IMG/VR virus record: IMGVR_UViG_3300007512_000001
Location: 1 to 64,000 of that record
Source of the DNA: a virus
Length of the DNA stretch: 64,000 nt
Reading direction: 5' to 3' (one strand)
Part shown: piece after piece, positions 7,481 through 32,358 of the stretch
Layout of the letters: every line of letters starts with the position of its first letter
Numbering within the stretch: the stretch's first letter is position 1
The notes under the pieces: model-generated
Databases searched by the model: none
Seen by the model: only the letters and a program-made list of their open reading frames with translations
What the model was told of the DNA's origin: nothing
Program-made: the position numbers and the translations under genes

Positions 7481-7786
7481 ATGTCGGAAGTGAAAGAATT
7501 ACATTTTTATATCGATAGCGAATGGGATTTCAAACCCCCTGTTATACGCATATGGATAAATGATTTTCTACTAAGTGAGCGGGGAGTTACTCCCAAAAGG
7601 CAGGAAGGGAAATACTTAGATGAAAAAATTATCTTAGTATTAGAACCGGGGAGTTATAAATTAGTAGTGGAAAATATAAAAACCGCTTTAGCAGAAATAC
7701 AATTACATACTATTACGGTCAATGGTTTAAATTTATCATTCAAGACATTTGATGATATTCATTATGAAGCAACACTAGAAGTATAA
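7481..7786 (+). CDS. Small beta-rich protein, 101 aa
   Basis: Not recognised by name. The pattern YKLVVENIKT...IQLHTITVNGLNLSF matches the strand-loop-strand core (YTLVLEL...LCINDIDLND) of the 3293 and 4191 proteins, so it may be a single beta-sandwich domain of the same family. It starts directly at the predicted transcription start. The stop codon overlaps the ATG of the next gene (TAATG), indicating coupling. Confidence 0.7.
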   Translation: MSEVKELHFYIDSEWDFKPPVIRIWINDFLLSERGVTPKRQEGKYLDEKIILVLEPGSYKLVVENIKTALAEIQLHTITVNGLNLSFKTFDDIHYEATLEV

Positions 7787-8637
7787 TGTTAAAAATAAAA
7801 CTAGAACAAGACTCCAACACTAACTCTTATTATAGGATTAAAATAAATGGAGAACTACTGGATTATGGATTCTTAGAAAACAAAGAAGAGTTATTATGCT
7901 ATAAAGGCATAAAATTCTCAGATAAAGAAAAAACTTATATAAGCATTTCTTGTTCTGACGATAGATTTTTAAGAGTGAACGAAATTAGTTTTTATACATC
8001 TAGAGTAGTATCTTCAAAAGACAGTAAATATAAAAATTGGAATACTGATCATATTGCTAGTGGGGTTGTTGAAAATATTAATGAAGTAATGCAAGGGGAT
8101 TTCAGCAATGTAATCTTATCAGACGCTGTGGGTGGCAATCGAGAGTGGTTTTTTGTTATAGAAATTGATGAAACAATTTCGTTATGGGATCCTGACATTA
8201 GTTGGCGCAATCAGCCGCTACCGCCACCGCCACCGCCACCGCCGCCGCCACCGCCGCCACCGCCACAGGTTCCTGCAGACGAATTTGGTCCACCTAGACC
8301 TGACTCAGAATTCTGCTCTGATGTTTATAAGTTTGACAACGGCATTACATACGACGGTGAATTTCACCGTATAATATTCAATGATAAAACTATTGATATT
8401 ATAGTAGAAGGTTTTGGAAAAATGACTCTTGTTGACAAAACTTTACTAGATGGTGAATTTATAAATGGTAATTTTATTAGCGGAACAAAAACCAATCCAG
8501 ATAAAACAAAAGAAATAGGATATTTCTTAGGAGATAATAATAATATTAGACTTATTAAAGGAATTTATATAGATATAGAAGGACTCTCTCACAAAATTAA
8601 CACCGGGGAACAACATAACAAAGGAGAAAATCAATGA
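7786..8637 (+). CDS. Beta-rich protein with 15-residue polyproline linker
   Basis: A 283-residue protein in three parts. Residues 1-140 are beta-rich and end in EWFFVIEIDETISLW, like the C-terminal block of the adhesin-like family. Residues 146-160 are fifteen consecutive prolines encoded by alternating CCG/CCA codons (8221-8265). A C-terminal domain follows, with YDGEFHRIIF, DGEFINGNFISG and GYFLGD repeats that recall short beta-hairpin (MORN-like) units. The proline run would be a stiff linker. A virion fibre or adhesin role is likely but inferred. Confidence 0.7.
   Translation: MLKIKLEQDSNTNSYYRIKINGELLDYGFLENKEELLCYKGIKFSDKEKTYISISCSDDRFLRVNEISFYTSRVVSSKDSKYKNWNTDHIASGVVENINEVMQGDFSNVILSDAVGGNREWFFVIEIDETISLWDPDISWRNQPLPPPPPPPPPPPPPPPQVPADEFGPPRPDSEFCSDVYKFDNGITYDGEFHRIIFNDKTIDIIVEGFGKMTLVDKTLLDGEFINGNFISGTKTNPDKTKEIGYFLGDNNNIRLIKGIYIDIEGLSHKINTGEQHNKGENQ
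8221..8265 (+). repeat. CCG/CCA trinucleotide repeat (15 units)
   Basis: Forty-five bases of CCG and CCA codons only, inside an otherwise AT-rich gene. Length change by slippage would keep the frame and only alter linker length. Confidence 0.95.
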
Positions 8638-8787: not shown

Positions 8788-9045
8788 ATGGCAGAAACAT
8801 ATACACCAGAAGAAAAAGCACGACTATCCCAATTGGTCAATGAAGGTACTCGAGTACTGCAAGAAGTAGACGACCTTAAAGAAGGACTTAGAGACACTGT
8901 CAAAGCAATTGCTGAAGAAATGAATGTTAAGCCTTCCGTTCTAAATAAAGCAATTCGCACAGCATATAAATCAGACTGGCAAGATCAACTTGCTGATATT
9001 GGTGAACTTGAAGGTATTCTAGAATCAGTCGGAAAAACGCTGTAA
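8788..9045 (+). CDS. dsbA: DsbA-like double-stranded DNA-binding protein
   Basis: An 85-residue helical protein with the pattern of T4 DsbA and its marine T4-like relatives: NEGTRVLQEVDDLKEGLRDTVKAIAEEMNVKPSVLNKAIRTAYK. T4 DsbA binds DNA and is linked to late transcription. Length agrees with the family. It follows the lysine-tailed gene by one base, so the two are in one operon. Confidence 0.75.
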   Translation: MAETYTPEEKARLSQLVNEGTRVLQEVDDLKEGLRDTVKAIAEEMNVKPSVLNKAIRTAYKSDWQDQLADIGELEGILESVGKTL

Positions 9046-9074
9046 ATAACTAAATACTCCAAAGAGGATTTTTA

Positions 9075-10214
9075 GTGTTAAAACTAACTGATCAACATGT
9101 TGGTGGTTACGAACGAGTAGTTCGTGCAACCAATGACACTACAGGATTAGATGCCTGCATATCCATTCATAATACGCAACTAGGCCCCGCTATCGGTGGA
9201 TGTCGTTATATGGAATATAACGACTTTGAGGAGCAACGCTATGATGCGTTGCGTTTATCAAAGCACATGACATATAAAAATGCATTAGCCGGATTACACA
9301 ACGGCGGCGGCAAAACAACTATTAATACTCGTGCTTATAGTGGCGCAAATTCTTGTGACTTATGGAAATCGTTTGCAGAAGCATTAGAAAAACTAGATGG
9401 TATCTATTATACTGCGGGTGATATCGGAACTACTACTCAAGATCTTAAAGAAATACGTAGGCATACACAATATGTTTTAGGATATGAAGGAGACGATTCG
9501 GGATGGGCTACAGCATATGGTGTTTATAATTCTCTTTGTGGTGCTTACAAGTTCTTTCGAAACAAGCCCGTCATTGAATTCAATAAATATCTGTTAAATA
9601 AAAGGTCAATAGGAATCGTAGGACTAGGAAAGGTAGGAGAAAGATTAGTAAAATTTTTAACAGATAATGACTGTCAACGGTCATTAACTATTTACGTATA
9701 CGATATTCATAAAGAAAAATATGATAAAGTAAAAAAAGATGTAATTTCACGCAATGAACAGTGGCAATTGGGAGGTATATCGAATAGACTACAATGGTGT
9801 GATAGTATAGAAGAAATCAACCAACTTCCTGTAGACGTATATGCTCCTTGTGCCACAGGCGGTATGATTACTGAAAATTTTGCTAATGTTTGCCATGCTA
9901 AAATTATCTGTGGCGGCGCCAATAACCAATTAGAAAACAACGATGTTGCTCAAATATTATTTGATCGTGGTATTTTGTACGTTCCTGACTACTTAGCAAA
10001 TTCAGGAGGTGTTGTTCAAGTACGGTCTTCCTATGACATATCACACGACATAACCACTAGTTTAAATGTGTCGTGGGATAATCCATTAGTAAAAGATAGA
10101 TTAGAAGATCTTGATTTAAGAGCATATGAGATATTAGAACAAAGTCAAGAACAAAATAAACCTACCAATATTGTAGCAAAAGAAATCGTAGAAAACAAAC
10201 TAAAAGGCTTGTAA
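9075..10214 (+). CDS. Leu/Phe/Glu-type amino-acid dehydrogenase
   Basis: A 379-residue protein beginning with GTG after the Shine-Dalgarno AGAGG. The N-terminal catalytic domain has GPAIGGCRY and MTYKNALAGLHNGGGK, which match the substrate- and lysine-bearing motifs of leucine/phenylalanine dehydrogenases, followed by TAGDIGTTTQDL. The C-terminal Rossmann domain has GIVGLGKVGERL for NAD and VYAPCATGGMI, CGGANNQL and YVPDYLANSGGV. The family deaminates branched-chain, aromatic or glutamate-type amino acids with NAD. It is an unexpected gene for a phage. It could feed nitrogen or carbon metabolism during infection, or supply a 2-oxo acid to the biosynthetic genes further on. Confidence 0.88.
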   Translation: MLKLTDQHVGGYERVVRATNDTTGLDACISIHNTQLGPAIGGCRYMEYNDFEEQRYDALRLSKHMTYKNALAGLHNGGGKTTINTRAYSGANSCDLWKSFAEALEKLDGIYYTAGDIGTTTQDLKEIRRHTQYVLGYEGDDSGWATAYGVYNSLCGAYKFFRNKPVIEFNKYLLNKRSIGIVGLGKVGERLVKFLTDNDCQRSLTIYVYDIHKEKYDKVKKDVISRNEQWQLGGISNRLQWCDSIEEINQLPVDVYAPCATGGMITENFANVCHAKIICGGANNQLENNDVAQILFDRGILYVPDYLANSGGVVQVRSSYDISHDITTSLNVSWDNPLVKDRLEDLDLRAYEILEQSQEQNKPTNIVAKEIVENKLKGL

Positions 10215-10244: not shown

Positions 10245-12899
10245 ATGTATGTAGACGCTTATTTAGATAAGGAACAAAACAAGATACACGTGGCCGAGCG
10301 TGTAGACAGTAAACGCAAGTTTAAAGAGTTTCCAGTAGAATATACCTTTTACTTTGACGACCCAAGGGGCAAGTTCCAAACCATACACGGCTGGCCTGTA
10401 AGCCGTTTCCATTCCAAAAGCAAAAAAGAGTTTAACAGAGAACTAAAAATAAACCGTAGCAATACTGTTTATGAAAGTGATGTTAATCCTGTATTTAGAT
10501 GTCTTTCTGAAAACTATTTAGGTGCAGAATCTCCTAATCTAAATGTTTGCTACGTAGATATTGAGGCAGACTTCGATCCAGAAAAAGGCTTTAGCGAGCC
10601 CGGTGATCCAACAGCACCTATTACTGCTATTACTGTTTATTTGTCACAAATGAAACAGTTAATAACACTTACATTGCGTCCCAAGGGAATGTCTGAAGAA
10701 ATTGGCAAGGGCATTGCTAAAAACTTTGACAATACATTTATATTTGATTACAAAGACGAAAAGAAACTAATAGAAACGTTTCTTGATCTCATACAAGACT
10801 CTGATATTATTACTGGCTGGAATAGCGAAGGGTATGATTTACCATATCTGATTAATAGAACTACAAAAGTAATGAGCAGAGACGATACACGGCGTTATTG
10901 TTTATGGAATCAGTTTCCTAAAAAGTATGAGTATGAAAAGTTTGGAGCGCGGCAAGAAGGCTTTCATTTAATAGGACGCATACATTTGGACTATCTGGAA
11001 CTATATCGTAAGTACACATATCATGAAATGCATTCCTATTCGCTGGATACAGTATCTGAATATGAATTAAATGATAGAAAGGTTCCATATGAAGGCACAC
11101 TTGACCAATTATATAACAGAGACTTCGAGAAGTTTATTGAATACAATAGGCAAGACGTTATGCTTATTGTGCGTATGGATGAGAAACTAAAGTTCATTGA
11201 TCTTGCTAACGTATTGGCACATGAAAATACTGTGCTTATTCCCACAACAATGGGAGCAGTAGCACTTACAGAACAGGCTATTATTAATGACGCCCATTCG
11301 CAAGGACTTATCGTTCCCAACAAACCTGACAGGGATAATGAAAAATCTGCCACGGCTGCCGGCGCTTGGGTTGCTAAGCCACGTAAAGGACTACACCATT
11401 GGATTGGTTCTGTAGATATTAATTCTCTGTATCCATCTGCTTTGCGAGCACTCAATATGAGCCCGGAAACCATCATTGGGCAATTACGTCCAACAATAAC
11501 ACAAAACCATATCAAGAGTGTTATTGATAGTGGTAAAACACATTCAGATAGTTGGGAAGGATTGTTTGGCTCGTTGGAATATGAAGCAGTAATGAACCGT
11601 GATAGAAATACTGAGATTACTATTGATTGGGAGGACGGTAAGATAGAAGTTAAAAACGCTATCGATATACATAAGATGGTGTTTAACAGTGATAATAAAA
11701 TCATACTTAGTGCCAATGGAACATTGTTTAGAAATGACAAGAAAGGCATTATTCCAGGATTGCTTGAAAAATGGTATGCAGAGCGTAAGGTTATGCAGAG
11801 CAAATTGCGTGAAGCAAAGACACCTGAAGAGATTGCGTTCTGGGATAAAAGGCAACTTGTTAAAAAGATTAATCTAAATAGTTTATATGGTGCATTGCTT
11901 AATCCCTACTGTAGATTTTTTGATATGCGTTTAGGTCAAAGCACAACATTATCAGGTAGAACTATTACTAAGCATATGGCTAGTTATATTAATAAGATTA
12001 TTACAGGAGAGTATGACTATCAAGGCGATGCTATTATATATGGCGATACAGACTCTTGTTATTTTTCCGCATATAATGTACTTAAAGATGATATAGACGC
12101 TGGCAATATTCCATGGGACCGAGAAGCAATCATTGAACTATATGACAAAGTGTCTGATGAAGTCAACAAAAACTTCCCTGCGTTTATGCAACAAACATTC
12201 AATTGCAATCATGAACTAGGTGAAATTATTCAATGTGGTAGAGAAATTGTTGCAAGCAGTGGACTATATATTACTAAAAAGAGATATGCGGCCCTTATAT
12301 ATGATTTAGAAGGCAAACGCACAGATCAAGATGGACCAGGTAAAGTAAAAGCAATGGGCATGGATCTCAAGAGATCAGATACGCCGGTGTTTATGCAGGA
12401 TTTTCTAAATATATTATTGCTCGATGTGTTAACCGGAGCAAAAGAAGAAGAAGTGATAGAAAAGATTAAAGCATTTAAACATGACTTTGCTGATAAACCG
12501 GGCTGGGAAAAAGGCACTCCAAAACGTGTAAACAACCTTACAATGTATACAAAGAAAGAAGAACGCCAAGGCAAAGCAAACATGCCTGGACACGTTAGAG
12601 CCGCGATGAATTGGAATACGTTGCGTAATATGAATAGTGACAAGTACAGTATGCAGATTATGGACGGGCAAAAGACAATTGTTTGCAAACTTAAGAATAA
12701 TCCGTTAAATATGACTAGCGTTGCGTACCCTATTGACGAGCAACGAATACCCCAGTGGTTTAAGGAACTTCCGTTTGACCACATAGCGATGGAACAGACC
12801 ATTATTGACAAAAAGGTAGGAAATCTATTAAATGTACTTAACTGGGATTTGCGCCAAGGCACTTCTAGAAGCACGTTTGATGATTTATTTGAATTATGA
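10245..12899 (+). CDS. 43: Family B DNA polymerase (T4 gp43-like)
   Basis: An 884-residue replicative polymerase of nearly T4 gp43 length. Exonuclease motifs: ExoI in YVDIEADFD, ExoII in ITGWNSEGYDLPYL, ExoIII in YNRQDVML. Polymerase motifs: A in VDINSLYPSALR, B in KKINLNSLYG, C in YGDTDSCYF. All catalytic acids are present, so both synthesis and proofreading should work. It is expressed from an apparent leaderless promoter and overlaps the next gene by 4 bases (ATGA). The sliding clamp gene lies nearby, as expected for a replication block. Confidence 0.97.
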   Translation: MYVDAYLDKEQNKIHVAERVDSKRKFKEFPVEYTFYFDDPRGKFQTIHGWPVSRFHSKSKKEFNRELKINRSNTVYESDVNPVFRCLSENYLGAESPNLNVCYVDIEADFDPEKGFSEPGDPTAPITAITVYLSQMKQLITLTLRPKGMSEEIGKGIAKNFDNTFIFDYKDEKKLIETFLDLIQDSDIITGWNSEGYDLPYLINRTTKVMSRDDTRRYCLWNQFPKKYEYEKFGARQEGFHLIGRIHLDYLELYRKYTYHEMHSYSLDTVSEYELNDRKVPYEGTLDQLYNRDFEKFIEYNRQDVMLIVRMDEKLKFIDLANVLAHENTVLIPTTMGAVALTEQAIINDAHSQGLIVPNKPDRDNEKSATAAGAWVAKPRKGLHHWIGSVDINSLYPSALRALNMSPETIIGQLRPTITQNHIKSVIDSGKTHSDSWEGLFGSLEYEAVMNRDRNTEITIDWEDGKIEVKNAIDIHKMVFNSDNKIILSANGTLFRNDKKGIIPGLLEKWYAERKVMQSKLREAKTPEEIAFWDKRQLVKKINLNSLYGALLNPYCRFFDMRLGQSTTLSGRTITKHMASYINKIITGEYDYQGDAIIYGDTDSCYFSAYNVLKDDIDAGNIPWDREAIIELYDKVSDEVNKNFPAFMQQTFNCNHELGEIIQCGREIVASSGLYITKKRYAALIYDLEGKRTDQDGPGKVKAMGMDLKRSDTPVFMQDFLNILLLDVLTGAKEEEVIEKIKAFKHDFADKPGWEKGTPKRVNNLTMYTKKEERQGKANMPGHVRAAMNWNTLRNMNSDKYSMQIMDGQKTIVCKLKNNPLNMTSVAYPIDEQRIPQWFKELPFDHIAMEQTIIDKKVGNLLNVLNWDLRQGTSRSTFDDLFEL

Positions 12900-13876: not shown

Positions 13877-14608
13877 ATGAAAGACATTTTAACAGACATT
13901 ATTAGCCACATACATTCTTTAGGCTTTTTAAACATTGTAAAAATAAATGGTTCTACAGAAGGGACAACCATTGAATCAATGGAAGAAAGTAGAGCAGTAG
14001 TATTAATAGCAGAAACACATGATCCGGTTGCTGAATTTATTGGTACATTCGGTATGCCAAACCTAAATAAACTTGATACGTTACTAAAAATTCCTGCATA
14101 TAAAGAGGATGCCGTTCTTACTATTAACCAGCAAGAACGCAACGGAACTGTGATTCCAGTAGGTATTCACTTTGAATCAGATGCCGGTGATTTTCAAAAT
14201 GATTATAGGTTTATGAATGCAGAAATTATTGAAAATAAATTAAAAAGTGCTAAATTTAAGTTATCTGAGTGGGATATTGAATTTGAACCATCTGTGCAAT
14301 CTATACAAAAATTTGGTTGGCAGGCACAAATCAATTCTGAAGAAGACGTATTTACAGTTAAAACCGAGAAAAAGAATTTAATATTTGAATTTGGTGACCA
14401 TAGCACACACGCAGGGCAATTTGTTTTTGAAACCAGTATCGACGGCACACTTAAAGGTAGTTGGTCATGGCCAGTGTTATTTGTACAAAAAATTCTTAAT
14501 TTGGCTGGTGACAAAGTTATGTCAATTAGTGACAAAGGCGCATTACAAATTATAGTAGACAGTGGTCTAGCAAAATACAAATATATTTTACCAGCACAAA
14601 GTAAGTAA
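13877..14608 (+). CDS. 45: Sliding clamp (T4 gp45-like)
   Basis: A 243-residue protein close to T4 gp45 in length (228). The region IAETHDPVAEFIGTFGMPNLNKLDTLL corresponds to the D-L-N-x-F-L-G segment of gp45-type clamps. The second half (FTVKTEKKNLIFEFGDHS, then SDKGALQIIVDSGLAKYKYILPA) has the repeated strand pattern and the YxxL-type end of clamp domains. Assignment also rests on the position just after the polymerase block. Similarity is distant, so a profile search would be useful. It is followed by dpdA with a TAATG overlap. Confidence 0.72.
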   Translation: MKDILTDIISHIHSLGFLNIVKINGSTEGTTIESMEESRAVVLIAETHDPVAEFIGTFGMPNLNKLDTLLKIPAYKEDAVLTINQQERNGTVIPVGIHFESDAGDFQNDYRFMNAEIIENKLKSAKFKLSEWDIEFEPSVQSIQKFGWQAQINSEEDVFTVKTEKKNLIFEFGDHSTHAGQFVFETSIDGTLKGSWSWPVLFVQKILNLAGDKVMSISDKGALQIIVDSGLAKYKYILPAQSK

Positions 14609-16098
14609 TGCAATCAGACTTTAGGAAAACACAGAAAGATTACGCAATATATTTGCCAGCAATTAGTTCTTTTTATGCCTCATATATTGGCAAGCAACGT
14701 TATGAAGAATACATTCCTGCTGACAGAATTCCTTCTCGCTTTACCAATGGCGTTGAAGGATTAAACTTTCTCAATATGGATGAAGGATACTTTAAGTATC
14801 CGTGGGCATTGTATTCTGCAGGCCATGCTAATATAAATCTTGATAAGCATGATCCCAAAGAGGATATGATTCGTAATAGAGATAACGCTAATACTATTTT
14901 ACTAGGTGATAGCGGAGGCTTTCAGATTTCTAAAGGTGTGTGGGAAGGACAATGGCTAGAACCATACGGAGTAGATGAAAAAACAGACAAAACTCGTGAA
15001 AAGGTTTTGCGTTTTTTAGAAGGTACCTTCGATTACTCTATGGTGTTGGACCTGCCTACTATGGGCGTTGATTGGGCCGCAGGAACAAAGCACGGATTAG
15101 ATACTTGGCAAAAGTGTTTACAAGGCACATTAAATAATAATGACTTCTTTGCTCAAGCAAGGACACCGGGTGCGACAAAGTTTTTAAATGTTCTGCAAGG
15201 TAATAACTGGGATCAAGCAGAGAAATGGTATGAAGCAGTAAAACCATATAGCACAGGTGAAAAAGCAAACTTTGAATGTTTTGCTATGGCGGGTTGGAAC
15301 AAAAAAGATATTGAGATTGCGTTGAAACGTTTTGTTACATTGCGTAGGGACGGGTTGCTACAAGATTGTGAATGGATACACTTCCTTGGTACAGGTGAAT
15401 TATTATGGAGTATTATGCTAACCGCACTACAACGAACAGTAAGAGATACAACGAGTCCAGATATTATACTTTCATATGACTGTGCTTCGCCGTTTCTAGC
15501 AACAGCATATGGTACAATCTATACAAGCATACATACAGATCATCTACGCAAGGGCGGATGGACTTATAGAATGATTAAAGCTATCGACGACAAGAAGTAT
15601 TCAACTGATAGCAGAATATATGATTATAACATTGAACATCCGGGTGTCGCGTGGGAACCCAGTGTTATTACAGAAATGATTGAAATGAAGGATGTTTGCC
15701 AATATGGTCCGGGCGATTTAAATAAAATAGGCAAGGAAGGAAAAACTAGTTGGGATAGTTTTAGTTATGCAATACAAATGGGGCATAACGTTTATATGCA
15801 TATCCTAGCAACACAGCGAGCAAATGAGTGCTATGACGAAGGAATATATCCCCCTAGTCTAGTAGCACCCAATGGCGCAACTATCTCTGATGTTATTACA
15901 GATATATTTGCCCATAAAGATTATAATAATGCCATGGCAGAAATACATAAGTATAGTAAGTGGTTTGCTAGAATACAAGGCGAATTCAAAGCAGATGCTA
16001 TGGCCGATGAATTTGGTATAGAACCAATGGGCAAAGTAGAAGAAGTAAGAAAAGAAAAATATAGCGCAGATAAGGCGTTCAACGAACTATTTAACTAA
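14608..16098 (+). CDS. dpdA: DpdA-like 7-deazaguanine DNA transglycosylase
   Basis: A 496-residue protein of the tRNA-guanine transglycosylase superfamily. It has the hallmark DSGGFQ at residues 101-106, where the first Asp is the general base, and a second catalytic-type Asp at residue 291 in LSYDCASPFLATAYGT, equivalent to the DCVMPT segment of TGT. A conserved LDLPTMGVDW block and FLGTGELL lie between. Known DpdA proteins swap guanine in DNA for a 7-deazaguanine base. Genes for the precursor (folE, queD, queE) lie at 20-24 kb, supporting DNA rather than tRNA as the target. It is coupled to the clamp gene by TAATG, so modification is transcribed with replication. Confidence 0.85.
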   Translation: MQSDFRKTQKDYAIYLPAISSFYASYIGKQRYEEYIPADRIPSRFTNGVEGLNFLNMDEGYFKYPWALYSAGHANINLDKHDPKEDMIRNRDNANTILLGDSGGFQISKGVWEGQWLEPYGVDEKTDKTREKVLRFLEGTFDYSMVLDLPTMGVDWAAGTKHGLDTWQKCLQGTLNNNDFFAQARTPGATKFLNVLQGNNWDQAEKWYEAVKPYSTGEKANFECFAMAGWNKKDIEIALKRFVTLRRDGLLQDCEWIHFLGTGELLWSIMLTALQRTVRDTTSPDIILSYDCASPFLATAYGTIYTSIHTDHLRKGGWTYRMIKAIDDKKYSTDSRIYDYNIEHPGVAWEPSVITEMIEMKDVCQYGPGDLNKIGKEGKTSWDSFSYAIQMGHNVYMHILATQRANECYDEGIYPPSLVAPNGATISDVITDIFAHKDYNNAMAEIHKYSKWFARIQGEFKADAMADEFGIEPMGKVEEVRKEKYSADKAFNELFN

Positions 16099-16109: not shown

Positions 16110-16751
16110 ATGGCAGTCAAAAAAATAAAAGCAAAGGTAGAAGATACAGTAGAAACAGACGACGACAAAGGGGGCCCGCGCAAACAGCGTCCACCTGCAG
16201 GACCACAGATGATTGGTGATCCACTTTATGATAACAATATACATATGTTTATGACAGACTTTAACGAAGAGTCATGTGCAATGGCAATTCGTTTTATTCT
16301 TGAGAAGAATGTAATACCTAAAAAACATAGACCAAAGCATTTAACACTTATGATTAACAGCCCCGGTGGTGCAGTACACGCCGCTTTTGCTCTTATTGAT
16401 GTTATGAAAGGATCTGCGATTCCTGTTAGAACAGTAGGTTTAGGAATGATCGCCTCATGCGGAATACTTACATTTATGGCGGGACAAAAAGGACATAGAG
16501 TTATTACTCCTAATACTTCTATTTTGTCACACCAATATAGTTGGGGTTCGCGTGGTAAAGAACACGAATTATTCGCAGTTGTACGTGAATTTGAAATGTC
16601 AACAGACCGTATGATAGCACATTATAAAAAATGCACTGGACTTTCTGAAAAGAAGATTCGTGAAATACTATTGCCGCCAGAGGATGTTTGGTTAAGTGCT
16701 GAAGAAGCAGTAGAATATGGCATTGCAGACGAGATTAGATCTGTTTATTAA
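16110..16751 (+). CDS. clpP: ClpP-like serine protease
   Basis: A 213-residue protein with the ClpP fold signature: LMINSPGGAVHAAFALIDVM (oxyanion segment), GLGMIASCGILTFMAG with the nucleophile Ser, ILSHQYSW with the catalytic His, and PPEDVWLSAEEAVEYGIAD with the Asp. A basic N-terminal tail of about 35 residues precedes the core. Marine phages often carry such clpP genes. It could act as a prohead-type protease or work with a host Clp ATPase; the position outside the head genes leans to the latter. Shine-Dalgarno AGGAG at a normal distance. Confidence 0.88.
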   Translation: MAVKKIKAKVEDTVETDDDKGGPRKQRPPAGPQMIGDPLYDNNIHMFMTDFNEESCAMAIRFILEKNVIPKKHRPKHLTLMINSPGGAVHAAFALIDVMKGSAIPVRTVGLGMIASCGILTFMAGQKGHRVITPNTSILSHQYSWGSRGKEHELFAVVREFEMSTDRMIAHYKKCTGLSEKKIREILLPPEDVWLSAEEAVEYGIADEIRSVY

Positions 16752-19958: not shown

Positions 19959-19979
19959 ATATAGTACTTGGAGAAATAT

Positions 19980-20666
19980 ATGAGCATTAGTAAAACAATT
20001 AGAAACAGAATGCTAGAACACGGTGGACGTTTTTGGGCAGGAGACAATATATCAGAATTTATCGAAGAAGAAGAAAAAGATCTGCTCATTGATGAACTAA
20101 CGGAAAAGTTTGAAGGAGTATTGGACACTCTGCTTATTGATAGGCATAGTGATCCTAACTCTATTGACACGCCGCGTCGTTTAGCAAAAATGTATATAAG
20201 AGAACTTATGAGCGGCCGTTTTGATAACATGCCCAATGCAACCGCATTTCCTAATCATGTAGAGGATGGTTACGAAGGCATGCTTGTTGTAAGAAGTGAA
20301 ATACGTAGCGTTTGCTCCCATCATTTTCAACCAGTAACCGGAGTTGCATATATTGGCATTATCGCGGCAGACACACTTATAGGATTATCCAAATATACAC
20401 GTATAGCACAATGGTGTGCCAGACGGGGAACACTACAAGAAGAACTTGCCAACGACATAGCACATGAAATTATTAAAGCAACAGGTTCTAGTAATGTAGG
20501 TGTTTACGTACAAGCAACGCATGGTTGCGTAGAAAATAGGGGTGTCATGGCACACTCTAGTCTAACACAAACAACAGTGCTTAAAGGATCATTTAAAGAA
20601 GATGCTTCTACTAAAAAAGAGTTCTTTGACAATATCAAACTTCAGCAAGAATTTGCTCCGCGATAG
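19980..20666 (+). CDS. folE: GTP cyclohydrolase I
   Basis: A 228-residue protein. ATG 19980 is preferred over an upstream TTG because it has GGAG six bases before it. The family's zinc site is present (VCSHHF with Cys and His; later Cys in THGCVENRG), as are the GTP-binding and catalytic blocks IGLSKYTRIAQW, RRGTLQEELANDI and ARLAKMY. The enzyme converts GTP to dihydroneopterin triphosphate, the first step toward CDG and preQ0. Here it feeds queD and queE in the same operon and, through them, dpdA. Confidence 0.94.
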   Translation: MSISKTIRNRMLEHGGRFWAGDNISEFIEEEEKDLLIDELTEKFEGVLDTLLIDRHSDPNSIDTPRRLAKMYIRELMSGRFDNMPNATAFPNHVEDGYEGMLVVRSEIRSVCSHHFQPVTGVAYIGIIAADTLIGLSKYTRIAQWCARRGTLQEELANDIAHEIIKATGSSNVGVYVQATHGCVENRGVMAHSSLTQTTVLKGSFKEDASTKKEFFDNIKLQQEFAPR

Positions 20667-21368: not shown

Positions 21369-21845
21369 ATGAGCGGAGTACCTGAATTTACATCTACAAA
21401 AACATTTTATAACTTTCCGTGTGCTCATAGACAACACAAGCATGACGGAAACTGCGCTATGATACACGGCTATAGCCGTAGTTTTCATTTTACGTTTGGC
21501 GCACACACTATGACAAAAGAAGGATTTCTTGTTGATTATAGTGACTTGAAAGAACTAAAGAGATGGTTAGAAGAGAATTATGACCATACGTTTGTTATTG
21601 ATCACGATGACCCATATATGGAAACATTCCAAATGCTACACGATGCGGGTGTATGTAAATTAATTGTACAAGAAGAAGGGCCAGGTATGGAAGGCACTGC
21701 TATGCGTATCTGTAATTATGCTGATGGATGGTTACGCGAAAGAACAGGTGGCAGAGCATGGGTTATTAGTGTAGAAGCAAGAGAAAATGACAAGAACAGT
21801 TCAACCTATCATAACCCCGAAGCAGGGTTTAATGGATGGGTGTAA
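21369..21845 (+). CDS. queD: 6-carboxytetrahydropterin synthase
   Basis: A 158-residue QueD-type T-fold enzyme. The zinc and catalytic region is FPCAHRQHKHDGNCAMIHGYSRSFHF, with His20, catalytic-type Cys29 and His33; the usual HGH is HGY here, a variant I recall from some QueD-like proteins. DYSDLKELKRWL and DHTFVIDHDDP follow, and the substrate Glu lies in ISVEAREN. It turns dihydroneopterin triphosphate into 6-carboxytetrahydropterin for QueE. The last 10 bases overlap the amidinotransferase start. Confidence 0.88.
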   Translation: MSGVPEFTSTKTFYNFPCAHRQHKHDGNCAMIHGYSRSFHFTFGAHTMTKEGFLVDYSDLKELKRWLEENYDHTFVIDHDDPYMETFQMLHDAGVCKLIVQEEGPGMEGTAMRICNYADGWLRERTGGRAWVISVEARENDKNSSTYHNPEAGFNGWV

Positions 21846-23038
21846 TCAATTGTAACACAGGATTCCAACCACTAAAAGAATGTTGGTTAGGCGATTGCTA
21901 TCGTCCGGAGTTCTTTGACTACGTTGATAATATTAAAGTAAAAAATATTCTGCAACAAATTACTGAAGAAACCATAGAAGATTTAGAGAACATTAAAGAA
22001 GTATTAGAAAGTTATGGCGTAACTGTTAAACGCCCGAAACTTTTTGATTTTGATCAAGTATATAATATATACAAAGTTGGTGGAGCTTGTGTTGATGAAA
22101 ACTTAAACATTATTATTGATGAAGTATTAAATTATTTTCCAAGATTAATTGATAGGAAAGGTGTCGAAAGTTTTTTAGCAAACTACGATATATATGCAGA
22201 TCCAGGCGCACTCACCCGACCGCCATTATTTCCACGGGACGATCAAATCATAGTAGGAGAAACTTTTTATAAGTTAAGACCGTACAGCATGCCAGAAGTA
22301 AACCCGGCTTGTATAAATACTATTAATCCATTATATCCACAGGGAGGTGCCAGCCGAGCCCTTGCTATATTTTATGAACCATTATTCAAAGAATTAAAAG
22401 AACAAGGCGCAAATATTATTGAATTCCCGTGGAAAGACGATTATTTGAATGAGGGACCAAATATTGTGCGGCTTGGGGATACAATAATATTAGATGGATT
22501 GCGGCCGCATGTTTACAAATACTTTAAAAATCATTTTAAAGACAACTATAATATTATAACTGCTTTTAACGACGGGCATTCGGATGGTATATACGCACCA
22601 ATAAAACCCGGCGCATTTATATCAAATGGCGAAGCACTACAGTTTAAAAAGTATTTTCCAAATTGGGACGTATTCTACTTGCCAGACGCCCAATGGTCTA
22701 ATATGTCACCATTCTTAGAAGTTAGAGAAAAAGTACAAGGAAAATGGTGGATTCCAGGCGAAGAACACAACGACGAACTTATTGACTACGTAGATAAATG
22801 GTTTAGCGAGTGGGTAGGATTTTGTGAAGAAACAATTTGGGACGTTAATGTATTGATGGTAAATCCTGAAACTGTACTGTGCCTAACCGAAAATAAAGAA
22901 TTATTTAAATGGTTTAGAAAGCATAATGTAGAGCCTATAGTAACTCCGTTTAGGCATAGATTCTTTTGGGATGGTGGATTGCATTGCTTAACGTTAGACA
23001 TACACAGGGAAGGAGGCATTGAGAGTTATGCAAGATGA
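21836..23038 (+). CDS. Glycine-type amidinotransferase (AGAT-like)
   Basis: A 400-residue member of the arginine:glycine amidinotransferase / arginine deiminase superfamily. The triad can be read: an acidic residue in LNEGPNIVRLG, the His in DGHSDGIYAPIKPGAFIS, and the nucleophile Cys in WDGGLHCLTLDIHREGG near the C-terminus. Length agrees with AGAT. The family transfers an amidino group from arginine to an amine. It overlaps queD by 10 bases and is followed by a small gene and queE, so its substrate may be part of the 7-deazaguanine pathway. An alternative is a free-standing guanidino-acid product. Confidence 0.85.
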   Translation: MGVINCNTGFQPLKECWLGDCYRPEFFDYVDNIKVKNILQQITEETIEDLENIKEVLESYGVTVKRPKLFDFDQVYNIYKVGGACVDENLNIIIDEVLNYFPRLIDRKGVESFLANYDIYADPGALTRPPLFPRDDQIIVGETFYKLRPYSMPEVNPACINTINPLYPQGGASRALAIFYEPLFKELKEQGANIIEFPWKDDYLNEGPNIVRLGDTIILDGLRPHVYKYFKNHFKDNYNIITAFNDGHSDGIYAPIKPGAFISNGEALQFKKYFPNWDVFYLPDAQWSNMSPFLEVREKVQGKWWIPGEEHNDELIDYVDKWFSEWVGFCEETIWDVNVLMVNPETVLCLTENKELFKWFRKHNVEPIVTPFRHRFFWDGGLHCLTLDIHREGGIESYAR

Positions 23039-23354
23039 CATTAATAAGGCAAAAGACCTAATAGACAAATGCTTCGATAATTTTAAAATACCTCGACACA
23101 GTGTATACATATCACGAACTGAACGTAATACACTTGACAATCTTAAAGAAATTGTTATAATATTAGATAAACTTCCAAAAAGATTAGAAGAAGAAAAGCA
23201 AGAATGGAAAGAAGAATACGACGATATGCAAATTAAAATACAGCGAATGTTAAAGGGGCCTAGTTGGGGTATGACTAAGGAAGAACATCAAGCAATACCA
23301 CTACATAAATTATTTGGCGATAAATGGCAAGGAAATAAACCCGATGAAGATTAG
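23028..23354 (+). CDS. Hypothetical protein, 108 aa
   Basis: Not recognised. Start ATG 23028 has AGGAGG 11 bases upstream; TTG 23019 is a weaker choice. Residues 30-75 form a likely coiled coil (LDNLKEIVIILDKLPKRLEEEKQEWKEEYDDM). It overlaps the amidinotransferase and queE genes at its two ends (11 bases each), which ties it to that operon and makes it a candidate accessory subunit. Confidence 0.7.
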   Translation: MQDDINKAKDLIDKCFDNFKIPRHSVYISRTERNTLDNLKEIVIILDKLPKRLEEEKQEWKEEYDDMQIKIQRMLKGPSWGMTKEEHQAIPLHKLFGDKWQGNKPDED

Positions 23355-24228
23355 ATATACAGAAATATTTTATAGTTTACAAGGAGAGGGTAAGTTTACA
23401 GGCGTGCCGTCTGTTTTCTTGCGACTGTTTGGTTGTAATTTAAAATGCCAAGGTTTTGGAATGCCACGCGGTGAGTTAAGCAAAGAGCGACTCGGCGTTT
23501 TTGCCGCTGATTATACACACTTTGATGATTTGCCATTAGTTAGCACAGGATGTGACAGTTATGCAAGTTGGGATCCACGATTTAAATATTTAGCAACAGA
23601 TGTAGACTTAGACAAATTAGTAGATGATCTATTGGCAAAAACGCCCAATGGCAGTTGGATAATGCCCAATGGGCAAGACATACATTTAGTTATTACGGGC
23701 GGTGAGCCTATGATGTGGCAAAAAATATATCCTGATTTATTTGCACATGATCGTATGCAGGATTTAAAAAATGTTACATTCGAGACTAATACTACTAGAA
23801 ATTTAACTGACAAAATTTTTGAATGGTTTTACGACTGGCGAAATTGGACCGGTGATTTTGCTAATTACAGGACTCCTATCAGACCATATGTTACCTGGTC
23901 GTGCTCTCCTAAACTATCAGCAAGCGGCGAACCATGGGGAAAAGCAATTAAGCCTGATGTGGCGGCCGCATATTATAAAATGCCTTTCTCAGACATGTAT
24001 TTTAAATTTGTTATTGATAGCGAAGAAAGCATGGATGAAGTAGAAAAAGCCATTGCAGTATATAAAGAAGCAGGCGTTGACTGTCCTGTTTATTGTATGC
24101 CTGTAGGTGGTTTATATGATGATTATAAAAAGAATACACGCATTGTCGCAGAAGCAGTTATGAAACATGGATTACGTTATAGTCCAAGACTACACTCTGA
24201 TCTGTTTGGTAATGCATGGGGAACATAA
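23344..24228 (+). CDS. queE: 7-carboxy-7-deazaguanine synthase
   Basis: A 294-residue radical SAM protein. Start ATG 23344 is chosen because the conserved IRYTEIFYSLQGEGKFTG begins at once. Cluster cysteines are in FGCNLKC and then TGCDSYASWD, giving CX3CX34C: a 30-residue insert separates the second and third ligands compared with the CX3CX2C form. The glycine motif VITGGEPMMW follows. QueE converts 6-carboxytetrahydropterin to CDG. It depends on a reductant, for which the phage ferredoxin is a candidate. Confidence 0.9.
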   Translation: MKIRYTEIFYSLQGEGKFTGVPSVFLRLFGCNLKCQGFGMPRGELSKERLGVFAADYTHFDDLPLVSTGCDSYASWDPRFKYLATDVDLDKLVDDLLAKTPNGSWIMPNGQDIHLVITGGEPMMWQKIYPDLFAHDRMQDLKNVTFETNTTRNLTDKIFEWFYDWRNWTGDFANYRTPIRPYVTWSCSPKLSASGEPWGKAIKPDVAAAYYKMPFSDMYFKFVIDSEESMDEVEKAIAVYKEAGVDCPVYCMPVGGLYDDYKKNTRIVAEAVMKHGLRYSPRLHSDLFGNAWGT

Positions 24229-27976: not shown

Positions 27977-28199
27977 TTTGCGCCCTGTAGAAAATCTACT
28001 TAACCAAATTGCCGGAATTAGACACACCGGACAAAATGAGTTAAGGATAGGCAAGCAACATTGCCAAGATCTTGAACATTGTTTGGCTGTACTTTTGACT
28101 CATATTGCAACTTGTCAAGAAGAAATCATTAGATTACAAAAAGAAAAACTTGAAGACAACGTTATTAAAGTAGAGTTTGACGCTGGAGAATTCGAGTAA
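27957..28199 (+). CDS. Hypothetical protein, 80 aa
   Basis: Mostly helical with a likely coiled coil in its second half (HCQDLEHCLAVLLTHIATCQEEIIRLQKEKLE). Four cysteines or histidines in the helix could bind metal. Function unknown. Confidence 0.65.
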   Translation: MPNPQLNLRPVENLLNQIAGIRHTGQNELRIGKQHCQDLEHCLAVLLTHIATCQEEIIRLQKEKLEDNVIKVEFDAGEFE

Positions 28200-28203
28200 T
28201 AAA

Positions 28204-28278
28204 ATATTTAATCTGCGGATAAATAGTTATATGTACATATTATGCCTTGTACATATAATGGAGAAGCAGATTAAATAT
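28204..28278. repeat. Nested inverted repeats overlapping a start codon
   Basis: Outer arms of 13 bases (28204-28216 and 28266-28278) are perfectly complementary; inside them, arms of 11 bases (28227-28237 and 28248-28258) enclose a 10-base loop. The start codon of the 28277 gene lies in the base of the outer stem, and its GGAG lies in the internal loop. This could be a translation-controlling RNA, a cruciform, or a protein-binding site. Confidence 0.85.
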
Positions 28279-28570
28279 GAGCAGGCCAAAACCTAAAGTT
28301 CTTTTAGAACACATTAACAAGGACACATATAAGTCAGACCAGATTTTAGAAGTAGAAGGTATCTGGACAGTGTTCTATGACGGTCAGCCAATCAACCTTA
28401 AGACAAGTAATCTATTAGTCAATTACCCTGGGCCAAAATACAAAAGAATAGCCTTTGGTAATCCAGGTCACGCACATAACTTGGCTAAAAAATTAAATTC
28501 CCAATTTAAGACAGATAAATTCTCAGTGTTTTTATTATCTAAAGGGAAAAAAGTAAAACCTAGTGAGTAA
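28277..28570 (+). CDS. Hypothetical protein, 97 aa
   Basis: Not recognised. Beta-rich N-terminus (ILEVEGIWTVFYDGQPINL) and basic tail (FLLSKGKKVKPSE). The start codon is paired in the nested hairpin described at 28204, so translation may be controlled. Confidence 0.68.
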   Translation: MSRPKPKVLLEHINKDTYKSDQILEVEGIWTVFYDGQPINLKTSNLLVNYPGPKYKRIAFGNPGHAHNLAKKLNSQFKTDKFSVFLLSKGKKVKPSE

Positions 28571-28979
28571 GCAATTAACAAAATTAGACTACACAACAAA
28601 ATTTTTTAGTCTGCTAGATATACCAGATAATCAAAAAAATAGAAAAAAATATCTTGATTTCTGGTGGTATAATATTAGAGAATCTAGCAATGGACTACGA
28701 CTTACTAAGCCGGGATATCTAACAATAACAAAAGAGTTGGATATAAAGGAATACAAGTTCGATCTAGATATAGATGATTACGAAGGGAAACTGCATCTGT
28801 ATCTAGATTTGGACCACTATATCCCAAGCCCGTATTTCATACATTCTAATAAAATAGGGAAATTACATAAAGCAATGAAAATCTCGATTTTTGAAGAAAA
28901 ACTGGCTACAATGTTTTATTTAAGCGGAAATTCCCTTAATAAAATTGTGGAATCTATGCGATTATCGCTTGAATTCTAG
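28563..28979 (+). CDS. Hypothetical protein, 138 aa
   Basis: Starts with GTG, overlapping the previous gene by 8 bases. Middle part is acidic and beta-rich (FDLDIDDYEGKLHLYLDLDHYI); the end is helical (EEKLATMFYLSGNSLNKIVESMRLS). Function unknown. Confidence 0.65.
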   Translation: MSKQLTKLDYTTKFFSLLDIPDNQKNRKKYLDFWWYNIRESSNGLRLTKPGYLTITKELDIKEYKFDLDIDDYEGKLHLYLDLDHYIPSPYFIHSNKIGKLHKAMKISIFEEKLATMFYLSGNSLNKIVESMRLSLEF

Positions 28980-29007
28980 TATTTTTTAGCATTTTTTTAA
29001 AAGTCCT

Positions 29008-29067
29008 TTAAAATCAACAACTTACATCACCTTTTTTCATGACAATTTCGCCCAGATCCCGTATAAT
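29008..29067 (+). promoter_or_regulatory. Shared promoter cassette, copy A
   Basis: A 60-base block ending in ATGACA (29039-29044), a 17-base spacer and TATAAT (29062-29067). It lines up without gaps with 36515-36574, sharing TCAA.ACTTA, CACC.TTTTTC and TGACAA..TCGCCC. Its downstream GCTAAAGAAA leader also recurs after copy B at 34904. Confidence 0.75.
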
Positions 29068-29098
29068 GTATATATACGCTAAAGAAACAGGCAGAAAT

Positions 29099-29590
29099 AT
29101 GAAAATCGTTATTACTACACAGATTCTCGAAAACTACGGCGCCCATGATTGGGACGGCCAGGGTGAATGTCCTCAATACTGGAAAGCCAAGGGTGGCGAA
29201 CTTTATGTGGTTGAAAACCTGTCACCCATGGAAGCCATTGAGGCTGTTAAACCCGGCGGTCTTGCTGATCGTGTTGGTGACGCGGTTACCGTCCGGGACA
29301 ATCCCGCCTTTGAGGAGTATGTGATCGGTTGTAACTTGCTCGACGAGTGCGAGCCGGTTGGCGAGGAGTGGGAAACTCCTTGGATCCTGGTCGAAACTGA
29401 TATCGGCTTTTATGCTGAACAGTTCCGCGCTCGGGACTACAGTTGGTCCGATGACGCTGAAGGCGTCATTGGAATGCGGTCGTCCAAGACCATCGTTGCT
29501 GGTGAAGCGGACAAATACAATCCTGTCCTTTATGTTTATGAGGACGGTGAAACCAAAACTTTCGAAGAATTTCGTGCGGAGGCCGCGTAA
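29099..29590 (+). CDS. Hypothetical protein, 163 aa
   Basis: First gene of a stretch with visibly higher GC and different codon use. ATG 29099 is chosen because it follows the promoter leader; the sequence KIVITTQILENYGAHDWDGQG starts there. The protein is acidic and Gly/Glu rich. I do not recognise its function, though the opening block looks like proteins common in accessory regions of phages and plasmids. It overlaps the next gene at one base. Confidence 0.72.
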   Translation: MKIVITTQILENYGAHDWDGQGECPQYWKAKGGELYVVENLSPMEAIEAVKPGGLADRVGDAVTVRDNPAFEEYVIGCNLLDECEPVGEEWETPWILVETDIGFYAEQFRARDYSWSDDAEGVIGMRSSKTIVAGEADKYNPVLYVYEDGETKTFEEFRAEAA

Positions 29591-30156
29591 TGGCATGGTA
29601 TAATCAAGAACGGAAGAAAGCAGTTCAACCCGCAATGCGAAAACTGCTGAAGGAGTACGGACTCAAAGGTTCATTGTCCGTCCAAAATCACAGCACAGTG
29701 GTCCTTACCATCAAGTCTGGTGCCATCGACTTTGAAAATTCCAGAACCGCAGAGCATACCCATAACCAGGTAAACGTATACTGGATCGATAGTCATTGGA
29801 CTGGCAAAGCCAAGGAGTTTTTGACCAAGGCCAACGATCTGCTCAACATCGATAACTACGATAACTCCGACATTATGACAGACTACTTTGATGTTGGTTG
29901 GTATGTTGACATTAATCTCGGCAAATGGAACCAGCCGTATGTTTACGAGCCTGGTGCGAGCGATCGAGTAAAGAAGGCGTCATCCAAGAAAAAGAAGGCC
30001 GCCAAGAAGAAGTCCGTAAAGAAGTGGACTGCTCTCGAAGGCGAAGCGACCAAGAAGCAGTTGTGGGCCTTGTTTTGTATCACCAAGAAGGACCATCGCG
30101 ATATGGGACTTTCGCGACAAGAAGCGTATGATATGATTCAGGAGTTGAACTCGTAA
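29590..30156 (+). CDS. LPD29-like domain protein with basic linker
   Basis: A 188-residue protein. Residues 1-125 (LSVQNHSTVVLTIKSGAIDF, NVYWIDSHWTG, YFDVGWYVDINLGKWNQPY) resemble the LPD29-type domain of polyvalent mobile-element proteins; this is from memory of the pattern. A lysine-rich linker (KKASSKKKKAAKKKSVKK) at about residues 130-147 leads to a C-terminal helical segment (ATKKQLWALFCITKKDHRDMGLSRQEAYDMI). Role unknown; DNA-binding or anti-defence are possibilities. Confidence 0.6.
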   Translation: MAWYNQERKKAVQPAMRKLLKEYGLKGSLSVQNHSTVVLTIKSGAIDFENSRTAEHTHNQVNVYWIDSHWTGKAKEFLTKANDLLNIDNYDNSDIMTDYFDVGWYVDINLGKWNQPYVYEPGASDRVKKASSKKKKAAKKKSVKKWTALEGEATKKQLWALFCITKKDHRDMGLSRQEAYDMIQELNS

Positions 30157-30446
30157 TGGCACATCGAAAGACAATCGAAGTTGAGAAAGTTAAGGGTATG
30201 GCAAATCGAGCCCTTGAAGCATCTATGCGTTGGAGCGAGGTAGAAAGCAAATACGTTCCTGTTGATCGCTACTGGCGCCAAGGCGTGATGTTGATGGTTG
30301 AGCAAGTCCTTATGGACTCTGGCAATTACAAGGGGTTTGGCTACTTGACTGAAAACGAAGTTCCGAAAGGAGCATTGCCCGGTATACGGCGCAACAAAGC
30401 GGATAAATTCGAAAACACTGACAATACTCGCGTGAGGTATTTTTAA
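30156..30446 (+). CDS. Hypothetical protein, 96 aa
   Basis: Not recognised. Soluble, helical start (VKGMANRALEASMRWSEVESKYVPVDRYWRQG). Overlaps the preceding stop by one base, so it is in one operon with 29099 and 29590. Confidence 0.68.
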   Translation: MAHRKTIEVEKVKGMANRALEASMRWSEVESKYVPVDRYWRQGVMLMVEQVLMDSGNYKGFGYLTENEVPKGALPGIRRNKADKFENTDNTRVRYF

Positions 30447-30447
30447 A

Positions 30448-30858
30448 ATGGTTGACTACACTATCACAGCATTGGGTGATGACGTTAACATTCACCTGAC
30501 AACCTATCAAGGGGCAGTTGTCGCAACCTACGAGGAGATTCGATCTCTCTTTATTTTTAATGTAGGTATGGACAAAGACCCCGAATACTCATTTGAGGAT
30601 GCGCGGATCCGCGCTTCGCGAGGATATCAAAACGTACATAACGAGTTTCGTGTAGAGATGAGCGTTACAGGAGATGATGTTGAACCAGAATATTGGAAGC
30701 ATAAACTAGTCGCTACTATATACGACTGGAAACCGAAAAAATCTGACGACGCGATGAAGGGATACTACCATTGGCGCGTCGGTGGCCACGAATCGTGTGT
30801 AGAAGGCTACATCAACGATATGGTTAAACGACAACGAAAGGTATTAACCAATGGTTGA
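30448..30858 (+). CDS. Hypothetical protein, 136 aa
   Basis: Not recognised. A soluble beta-rich protein (ITALGDDVNIHLTTYQGAVVATY, HKLVATIYDWKPK) with charged C-terminus (NDMVKRQRKVL). Part of the same tight operon. Confidence 0.66.
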   Translation: MVDYTITALGDDVNIHLTTYQGAVVATYEEIRSLFIFNVGMDKDPEYSFEDARIRASRGYQNVHNEFRVEMSVTGDDVEPEYWKHKLVATIYDWKPKKSDDAMKGYYHWRVGGHESCVEGYINDMVKRQRKVLTNG

Positions 30859-30928
30859 TGTTATTATCGAGTTGTTTATTATGGCAGGCTTAGTTCTGAC
30901 TTTGTGGGCAACACTGACACAGCCATGA
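30851..30928 (+). CDS. Tiny membrane peptide, 25 aa
   Basis: ATG 30851 lies within the end of the previous gene and TGA 30926-30928 overlaps the next ATG. The product is one hydrophobic helix (VIIELFIMAGLVLTLWATL). Coupling on both sides supports a real gene. Confidence 0.45.
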   Translation: MVDVIIELFIMAGLVLTLWATLTQP

Positions 30929-31113
30929 GCAAGATTAATCCAAAGAAAATGTCTGATGTTGATCTTTACTTTGAAATGGATCGCATCTGGATAGCAGACG
31001 ATTGCCCTGAAATGACTACAAAACTGTTTAACAGATATATCTCAGAAAATTTCGCCGGCGAAACGGTGCAGAAGCGTCTTAATTATTATACCTGGAAAGA
31101 GGATAGGTGGTAA
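30925..31113 (+). CDS. Hypothetical protein, 62 aa
   Basis: ATG 30925 is chosen over an upstream GTG because it overlaps the tiny peptide's stop (ATGA). Acidic helix followed by KRLNYYTWKEDRW. Function unknown. Confidence 0.6.
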   Translation: MSKINPKKMSDVDLYFEMDRIWIADDCPEMTTKLFNRYISENFAGETVQKRLNYYTWKEDRW

Positions 31114-31114
31114 T

Positions 31115-31444: not shown

Positions 31445-31448
31445 CATA

Positions 31449-31619: not shown

Positions 31620-31630
31620 GGAGAAGCACA

Positions 31631-32060: not shown

Positions 32061-32103
32061 AAAGAATTTATAATTGCTATAAGTTTATTTTATGTAGAAA
32101 TGC

Positions 32104-32132: not shown

Positions 32133-32164
32133 ATTATATACGATAAACACAACACGGAGCGTAA

Positions 32165-32344: not shown

Positions 32345-32358
32345 GTAGAAACCACACA

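What the first reader, a model, noticed from the sequence alone, without database searches (positions are those of the whole stretch)
9075..10214. Amino-acid dehydrogenase just upstream of the DNA polymerase
A complete Leu/Phe/Glu-type dehydrogenase, including the catalytic Lys region and NAD motif, is unusual in phages. It may redirect host nitrogen or feed 2-oxoglutarate-type acids to oxygenases such as the one at 58151.
Basis: partly seen in the sequence, partly recalled or inferred. Interest (0 to 1): 0.58.

Follow-up and report, generated by a model that had tools for sequence, protein, structure and literature searches.

The report
Phage-encoded leucine dehydrogenase-like enzyme
An uncultured bacterial virus carries a complete, selection-maintained amino-acid dehydrogenase fixed right in front of its DNA polymerase gene, and many other uncultured phages carry relatives of it, which suggests that phages burn or rebuild amino acids while they copy their DNA.

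Summary
ORF 9075-10214 (+) is a 379-aa Glu/Leu/Phe/Val-type dehydrogenase, 30 nt upstream of the DNA polymerase, in a 178,943-nt T4-like phage record. Catalytic residues and NAD motif are intact. The AlphaFold2 model (pLDDT 90.9) matches leucine dehydrogenases best (Z up to 43.5). The pocket is aliphatic and lacks glutamate dehydrogenase's Lys and Ser, so supplying 2-oxoglutarate to the 'oxygenase' is not supported.

It is not a stray host gene. One scan found 47 viral-contig loci (two look bacterial). Nineteen core viral rows form one clade apart from the nearest bacterial relatives (99/98). dN/dS is about 0.13-0.17. It precedes the polymerase in 19 of 19 loci with a close polymerase, 0 of 6 more distant ones. 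PHROGs has no match; BFVD only Pandoravirus proteins.

Other lineages place it beside a ClpP protease, an M42 aminopeptidase, or, overlapping, an omega-aminotransferase. I propose NAD-dependent deamination of aliphatic amino acids during replication. The chemistry is well supported; substrate, direction and benefit are inferred. Controls show ClpP is common in such phages, so that link is only suggestive.

The parts
9063..9068 (+). AGAGGA ribosome-binding site, 6 nt before the GTG start
   Evidence: read from sequence
9075..10214 (+). amino-acid dehydrogenase (ELFV superfamily, leucine-dehydrogenase-like), 379 aa
9276..9278 (+). Lys68, substrate carboxylate-binding residue
   Evidence: aligned to K68 of 1leh; role from PMC8766677 passages
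9312..9314 (+). Lys80, catalytic
   Evidence: aligned to K80 of 1leh; role from PMC8766677 passages
9420..9422 (+). Asp116, catalytic (D115 of 1leh)
   Evidence: role from PMC8766677 passages
9621..9638 (+). GLGKVG dinucleotide-binding loop
9702..9704 (+). Asp210 at the column of 1leh D203; the acidic residue expected for NAD preference (role recalled)
9924..9926 (+). Asn284 (N262 of 1leh), carboxylate contact
   Evidence: role from PMC8766677 passages
10245..12899 (+). family-B DNA polymerase, 30 nt downstream; partner fixed in 19 of 19 close relatives
8788..9045 (+). 85-aa ORF directly upstream (phrog_12534; weaker match to a phage transcriptional regulator family)
16110..16751 (+). ClpP-type serine protease 5.9 kb downstream; a ClpP lies close to the dehydrogenase in several other phage lineages
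4940..6055 (-). GMP reductase (also ammonia-releasing), 3 kb upstream; context, not shown to be linked

Best explanation
It is an NAD-dependent L-amino-acid dehydrogenase of the leucine-dehydrogenase type, carried by the phage as a stable metabolic gene. Shown by sequence or model: intact catalytic and NAD sites, leucine-dehydrogenase fold, aliphatic pocket, purifying selection, a viral clade, and a fixed place 30 nt before the DNA polymerase gene in this lineage. Inferred: it is made together with the polymerase during replication; it oxidatively deaminates branched-chain amino acids, such as those released from host proteins (in many relatives a phage ClpP or an aminopeptidase is encoded close by), to 2-oxo acids, NADH and ammonium, so that amino acids beyond the phage's need for protein feed energy and nitrogen metabolism of the infected cell. 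In one relative it would regenerate the 2-oxo-acid acceptor of a translationally coupled omega-aminotransferase.
For: Domains and fold: (Z 43.5 to 7vid, 41.1 to 1leh; glutamate dehydrogenases at most 34.3). Residues: K68, K80, D115, N262 (1leh numbering) in 30 of 30 full-length viral rows; pocket 40/113/291/294 is I/A/V/V in the window, L/A/V/V in 1leh. Selection: dN/dS 0.13 (L016; dS 1.08) and 0.15-0.17 in three pairs among L024/L027/L028/L032. Clade 99/98. Polymerase pairing 19 of 19 close, 0 of 6 distant. Neighbours in other lineages: ClpP within about 6 kb in 28 of 47 loci, abutting or nearly so in L033, L038, L039, L046, L056; M42 aminopeptidase directly upstream in L044; class-III aminotransferase in ATGA overlap in L327.
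Against: No activity was measured and no expression data exist. Leucine dehydrogenase is reversible and its equilibrium favours amination (recalled), so direction is open. ClpP is common in such phages: of 80 ClpP loci only 14 have the dehydrogenase within 8 kb, and in G022 the two lie about 64 kb apart. Six loci with enough flank lack ClpP. G000 has no SbmA and no class-III aminotransferase. The best NCBIfam model is tryptophan dehydrogenase ScyB, far under its cut-off.
Confidence: 0.6

Rival explanations
1. It works in the opposite direction: reductive amination of 2-oxo acids, fixing ammonium to restore branched-chain amino acids for phage protein synthesis in a starved host.
For: The reaction is reversible (recalled). 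One relative, L036, has a marine-type ammonium transporter 3.0 kb downstream (TIGR03644 554 bits over cut-off 514).
Against: The transporter was found in only 1 of the 3 L034-L036 loci. Leucine dehydrogenases need high ammonium (recalled). ClpP and M42 neighbours suit breakdown better.
Confidence: 0.22
2. It prefers another amino acid, such as an aromatic one or alanine (tryptophan- or phenylalanine-dehydrogenase-like).
For: Best NCBIfam model is ScyB (185 bits). Phenylalanine dehydrogenase structures score Z 41.2, near leucine dehydrogenases at 41-43.5. The L045 group has a different pocket, F/G/V/S.
Against: The window's own pocket is I/A/V/V. The ScyB cut-off of 600 is missed by far. Foldseek and VIA rank leucine dehydrogenases first.
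Confidence: 0.13
3. It is a glutamate dehydrogenase that supplies 2-oxoglutarate to a dioxygenase at 58151.
For: Same superfamily; gdhB and GdhA models match weakly.
Against: Lys and Ser at columns 40 and 294 in both glutamate dehydrogenase references are Ile and Val here. Glutamate dehydrogenase structures score at most Z 34.3. No library match for 58151.
Confidence: 0.04
4. Its role is to deplete branched-chain amino acids or their sensors' signal, so as to manipulate host regulation or defence, not to feed metabolism.
For: Consistent with a place beside the polymerase; no direct evidence.
Against: No regulatory domain; ordinary catalytic residues; nothing seen in the neighbourhood points to signalling.
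Confidence: 0.07
5. It is contamination or a recent host gene picked up by chance.
For: Two of the 47 viral loci, L040 and L057, do look bacterial (by eye).
Against: Same gene at the same place in several separate contigs; viral clade; closest bacterial sequences under 40% identity.
Confidence: 0.02

Closest known systems
Bacterial leucine dehydrogenase (1leh, 6acf, 3vpx, 7vid)
   Same: Fold over residues 7-379 (Z 41-43.5), catalytic and carboxylate residues, aliphatic pocket, NAD loop
   Different: About 30-34% identity; phage gene; Gly instead of Glu at 1leh position 114; longer inserts after residue about 165 and around 225-250
Tryptophan dehydrogenase ScyB (5b37; NF035922)
   Same: Best NCBIfam model; same fold
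   Different: 185 bits against a cut-off of 600; Z 38.6, below leucine dehydrogenases
Pandoravirus glutamate dehydrogenases (S4VTL3, A0A0B5JDG5)
   Same: Viral members of the same superfamily (glutamate dehydrogenase in giant viruses also named in PMC9270025, passages read)
   Different: 14% identity, glutamate type, eukaryotic giant viruses
Phage auxiliary metabolic genes in general
   Same: Host-type metabolic enzyme kept by a phage
   Different: I found no phage leucine-dehydrogenase-type enzyme in print in searches (listings only)

Membership tests
Glu/Leu/Phe/Val dehydrogenase superfamily | ELFV_dehydrog_N and ELFV_dehydrog domains over cut-off | tested here: met
   66.8 and 60.9 bits against 25.3 and 23.4
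Glu/Leu/Phe/Val dehydrogenase superfamily | catalytic Lys, substrate Lys, Asp, GxGxxG | tested here: met
   K68, K80, D116, GLGKVG
Leucine dehydrogenase | aliphatic side-chain pocket (1leh L40, A113, V291, V294) | tested here: met
   I, A, V, V
Leucine dehydrogenase | closest fold match | tested here: met
   top five VIA rows are leucine dehydrogenases, Z 41.3-43.5; phenylalanine dehydrogenase at 41.2 is close
Leucine dehydrogenase | NAD+-dependent activity on Leu/Ile/Val; homo-octamer (recalled) | not testable with these tools
   needs purified enzyme
Glutamate dehydrogenase | Lys and Ser at columns 40 and 294 (1leh numbering) that hold the gamma-carboxylate (role recalled) | tested here: not met
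   Ile and Val here; Lys and Ser in L143 and L144
Tryptophan dehydrogenase ScyB (NF035922) | NCBIfam cut-off of 600 bits | tested here: not met
   185.3 bits
Phenylalanine dehydrogenase | fold and pocket | tested here: inconclusive
   Z 41.2; pocket not compared residue by residue
Phage auxiliary metabolic gene | encoded inside a genuine phage genome | tested here: met
   portal, prohead protease, major head protein, tail sheath, terminase, UvsX in the same record
Phage auxiliary metabolic gene | alters host metabolism in infection | not testable with these tools
   needs a cultured phage and host

The most novel reading that the evidence does not exclude
A widespread phage-only lineage of amino-acid dehydrogenases forms, with phage-coded proteases (ClpP, M42 aminopeptidase), a peptide importer of the SbmA type and an omega-aminotransferase in various combinations, a phage-run protein-recycling route: host or imported peptides are cut, their amino groups released as ammonium and their carbon oxidised to give NADH while the phage copies its DNA.
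Probability: 0.22. Interest if true: 0.75.

Novelty: new variant of a known kind. Interest (0 to 1): 0.5.

Why it matters
Phages are known to bring photosynthesis, phosphate, sulfur and nucleotide genes; amino-acid catabolism by a phage enzyme would be a new entry. Because the gene is locked to the DNA polymerase in one lineage and recurs beside proteases or an aminotransferase in others, it makes the question whether infected cells turn protein into energy and ammonium directly testable with one recombinant enzyme, and it bears on how viral infection returns nitrogen to the environment.

Tried and rejected
Literature: ten searches. None of the listings named a phage leucine dehydrogenase; searches returned nothing; one search was judged from its 15 listed titles of 245 papers. 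Passages only were read of PMC9270025, PMC11170926 and PMC8766677.

GMP reductase as a functional partner: near the dehydrogenase in the window and L327, but PF00478 is in 8 of 11 dehydrogenase-bearing records and 5 of 8 without it, so no enrichment. Class-III aminotransferase: 2 of 11 with, 1 of 8 without.

ClpP link: 28 of 47 dehydrogenase loci have ClpP; 13 are too short to tell; 6 are covered and lack it. Counter-controls: dehydrogenase in 14 of 80 ClpP loci and 4 of 80 SbmA loci (both sets capped at the best 80); a further record, G022, has the two about 64 kb apart. SbmA was dropped as a part of the window's system because G000 has none.

ClpP as a head protease (as some PHROG labels suggest): rejected for the window because the record has its own prohead protease.

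Tree: the first, quick tree (114 rows, partial rows L044, L057-L059 and duplicates left out) put 30 viral rows together at 96, with long branches; L040 fell among bacteria. The careful tree (71 rows) left out the long-branch viral rows L043, the L045 group, L046, L056, the bacterial-looking L040, and L105, L144, and thinned 29 Streptomyces rows. One search added L327, which falls at the base of the viral clade (93/99) but by BLAST is closer to bacterial leucine dehydrogenases (43-45%). The bacterial set is only the 80 nearest genome-contig loci plus a few plasmid ones.

GenBank phage hits H1 and H2 are unverified records; only H1 and H2 were opened and their surroundings look bacterial by eye; H3 and H4 were not opened.

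Full report
What is there. The ORF at 9075-10214 (+) starts with GTG after an AGAGGA site and encodes 379 aa. It carries both domains of the Glu/Leu/Phe/Val dehydrogenases over their cut-offs. The closest solved proteins by sequence are leucine dehydrogenases (6acf 5.7e-45, 3vpx 2.3e-44, 1leh 3e-44). PHROGs has no match, and NCBIfam's best model, tryptophan dehydrogenase ScyB, is missed by far (185 against 600 bits).

The genome that carries it. The window is the first 64,000 bases of a 178,943-base virus record. The same record holds portal, prohead protease, major head protein, tail sheath, large terminase and UvsX of phage type. The neighbouring polymerase is closest to those of large myoviruses such as Agrobacterium phage Atu_ph07 (47% identity).

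Active site. In an alignment with 1leh the carboxylate-binding Lys68 and Asn262, the catalytic Lys80 and Asp115, and the glycine loop are kept in the window and in 30 of 30 full-length viral rows. Of the partial rows, L044 keeps all four; L058 and L059 cover only Asn262 and keep it; L057, cut at its start and bacterial-looking, has Asn at column 68. The roles of K68, K80, N262, D115 and the pocket residues were read in passages of PMC8766677. The pocket columns 40, 113, 291, 294 are I, A, V, V in the window, L, A, V, V in 1leh, and K, A, V, S in two glutamate dehydrogenase references. The L045 group has F, G, V, S, so specificity probably differs between viral branches. Position 114, Glu in 1leh, is Gly in the core viral clade; the same paper ties that residue to ammonia activation. 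Asp210 falls at the column that in NAD-preferring Rossmann folds is acidic (role recalled).

Structure. AlphaFold2 on a 29-row alignment gives pLDDT 90.9, pTM 0.90. Foldseek against the PDB ranks leucine dehydrogenases first. VIA-align gives Z 43.5 (7vid), 43.3 (8gxd), 41.1 (1leh), phenylalanine dehydrogenase 41.2, tryptophan dehydrogenase 38.6 and glutamate dehydrogenases 34.3 or less. In BFVD only two Pandoravirus proteins of the family are found.

Relatives. Close relatives in viral contigs are 3 near-identical loci. A profile scan gave 47 loci at 30-100% identity; L040 and L057 look bacterial by eye. The best bacterial loci reach 39% identity in their best segment. Trees: 30 viral rows together at SH-aLRT 96; without the long branches, 19 viral rows as one clade at 99/98; with the later-found L327, 20 rows at 93/99. 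Pairwise dN/dS is 0.13 against L016 and 0.15-0.17 in three pairs among L024/L027/L028/L032 (dS between 0.5 and 1.1). So it is a long-standing viral gene under purifying selection.

Place in the genome. In the window's lineage the gene is bound to the polymerase: 19 of 19 loci whose polymerase is at least 79% identical have it 32-33 nt (stop codon included) before the polymerase, although the dehydrogenase itself falls to 50% identity; 0 of 6 loci with polymerases of at most 55% have it. Several of the 19 are near-copies. This suggests co-transcription, which was not measured.

Neighbours elsewhere. A ClpP-type protease is near the dehydrogenase in 28 of 47 loci: 5.9-6.05 kb downstream in the window's lineage; one primase gene downstream in the L045 group; upstream by 8-50 nt in L046, L033, L056; overlapping in L038 and 68 nt downstream (aligned parts) in L039. 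In L033, L038, L039, L046 and L056 this sits in a cassette with an SbmA/BacA-type transporter (PF05992 421 bits in L038) and ExbB/ExbD-like membrane proteins (the ExbB call is sub-threshold, 19.5 bits; ExbD is by eye). Between L038 and L046 the transporter is 75% identical, but ClpP 43% and the dehydrogenase 35%, and their order is swapped. L044 has an M42 aminopeptidase directly upstream (288 bits). L036 has a marine-type ammonium transporter 3 kb downstream, not seen in L034 or L035. L041 lies by a T7-type primase/helicase and RNA polymerase. In G022 (L327) the dehydrogenase overlaps by ATGA a class-III aminotransferase (NF005447 659.6 bits; PDB relatives are omega-, putrescine and polyamine:pyruvate transaminases).

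Limits. ClpP and SbmA are common in these phages: the dehydrogenase is within 8 kb in 14 of 80 ClpP loci and 4 of 80 SbmA loci. ClpP is in 9 of 11 dehydrogenase-bearing records and SbmA in 6 of 10 (both sets include the bacterial-looking G012), without a matched control set. G022 has the dehydrogenase about 64 kb from ClpP. G000 has no SbmA. The association is therefore a lead.

Mechanism. I commit to NAD-dependent oxidative deamination of aliphatic amino acids during replication. Chemistry (about 0.9) rests on residues and model; the branched-chain preference (about 0.6) on four pocket positions; direction and benefit (about 0.45) on neighbours only.

Novelty. The enzyme family is known; a phage-only branch of it, fixed to a polymerase, I did not find in print in the searches named, in PHROGs, or in annotated GenBank phages.

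Noticed in passing
window 14608-16098, 19968-20666, 21369-21845, 23314-24228: Likely 7-deazaguanine DNA-modification set: GTP cyclohydrolase I, QueD-type PTPS, QueE-type radical SAM, and a 496-aa protein that by eye resembles a DpdA/TGT transglycosylase but matches no Pfam, NCBIfam or PHROG model; 13 phage records such as PA5oct and Paride carry relatives (about 37% in the rows listed, called hypothetical).
   Followed up: partly
window 21836-23038: 400-aa protein between QueD and QueE that by eye looks like an amidinotransferase; only a weak match to an unnamed PHROG. It might add a guanidino-type group to the modified base.
   Followed up: no
L327 1-10001 (G022:C1:153000-163000): Phage cluster with class-III aminotransferase, dehydrogenase, lipase, GMP reductase, Peptidase_C26 amidotransferase, cytidylyltransferase-like, NifU-type and redoxin genes.
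   Followed up: partly
L038 6922-11675 and SbmA loci L225-L304: SbmA/BacA-type transporter with ExbB/ExbD-like genes (45 of 80 loci) and ClpP (41 of 80) in viral contigs; a possible peptide-import cassette in phages.
   Followed up: partly
L036 14051-15259: Marine-subtype ammonium transporter (TIGR03644) in a contig with a phage virion structural protein.
   Followed up: no
window 47172-64000 and G000 64000-72800: Long minus-strand run with several radical-SAM-like, GDSL-like and carbamoyltransferase genes (the carbamoyltransferase 52529-54196 confirmed, the rest by eye), perhaps tail or surface decoration chemistry.
   Followed up: no
window 28000-40000: GC rises to 0.40-0.46 against about 0.33-0.37 in most other stretches.
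   Followed up: no
window 7786-8637: Protein with an uninterrupted run of about 15 prolines.
   Followed up: no
GenBank OQ572413.1 and MT835825.1: Unverified phage records whose dehydrogenase regions look like bacterial chromosome by eye.
   Followed up: partly
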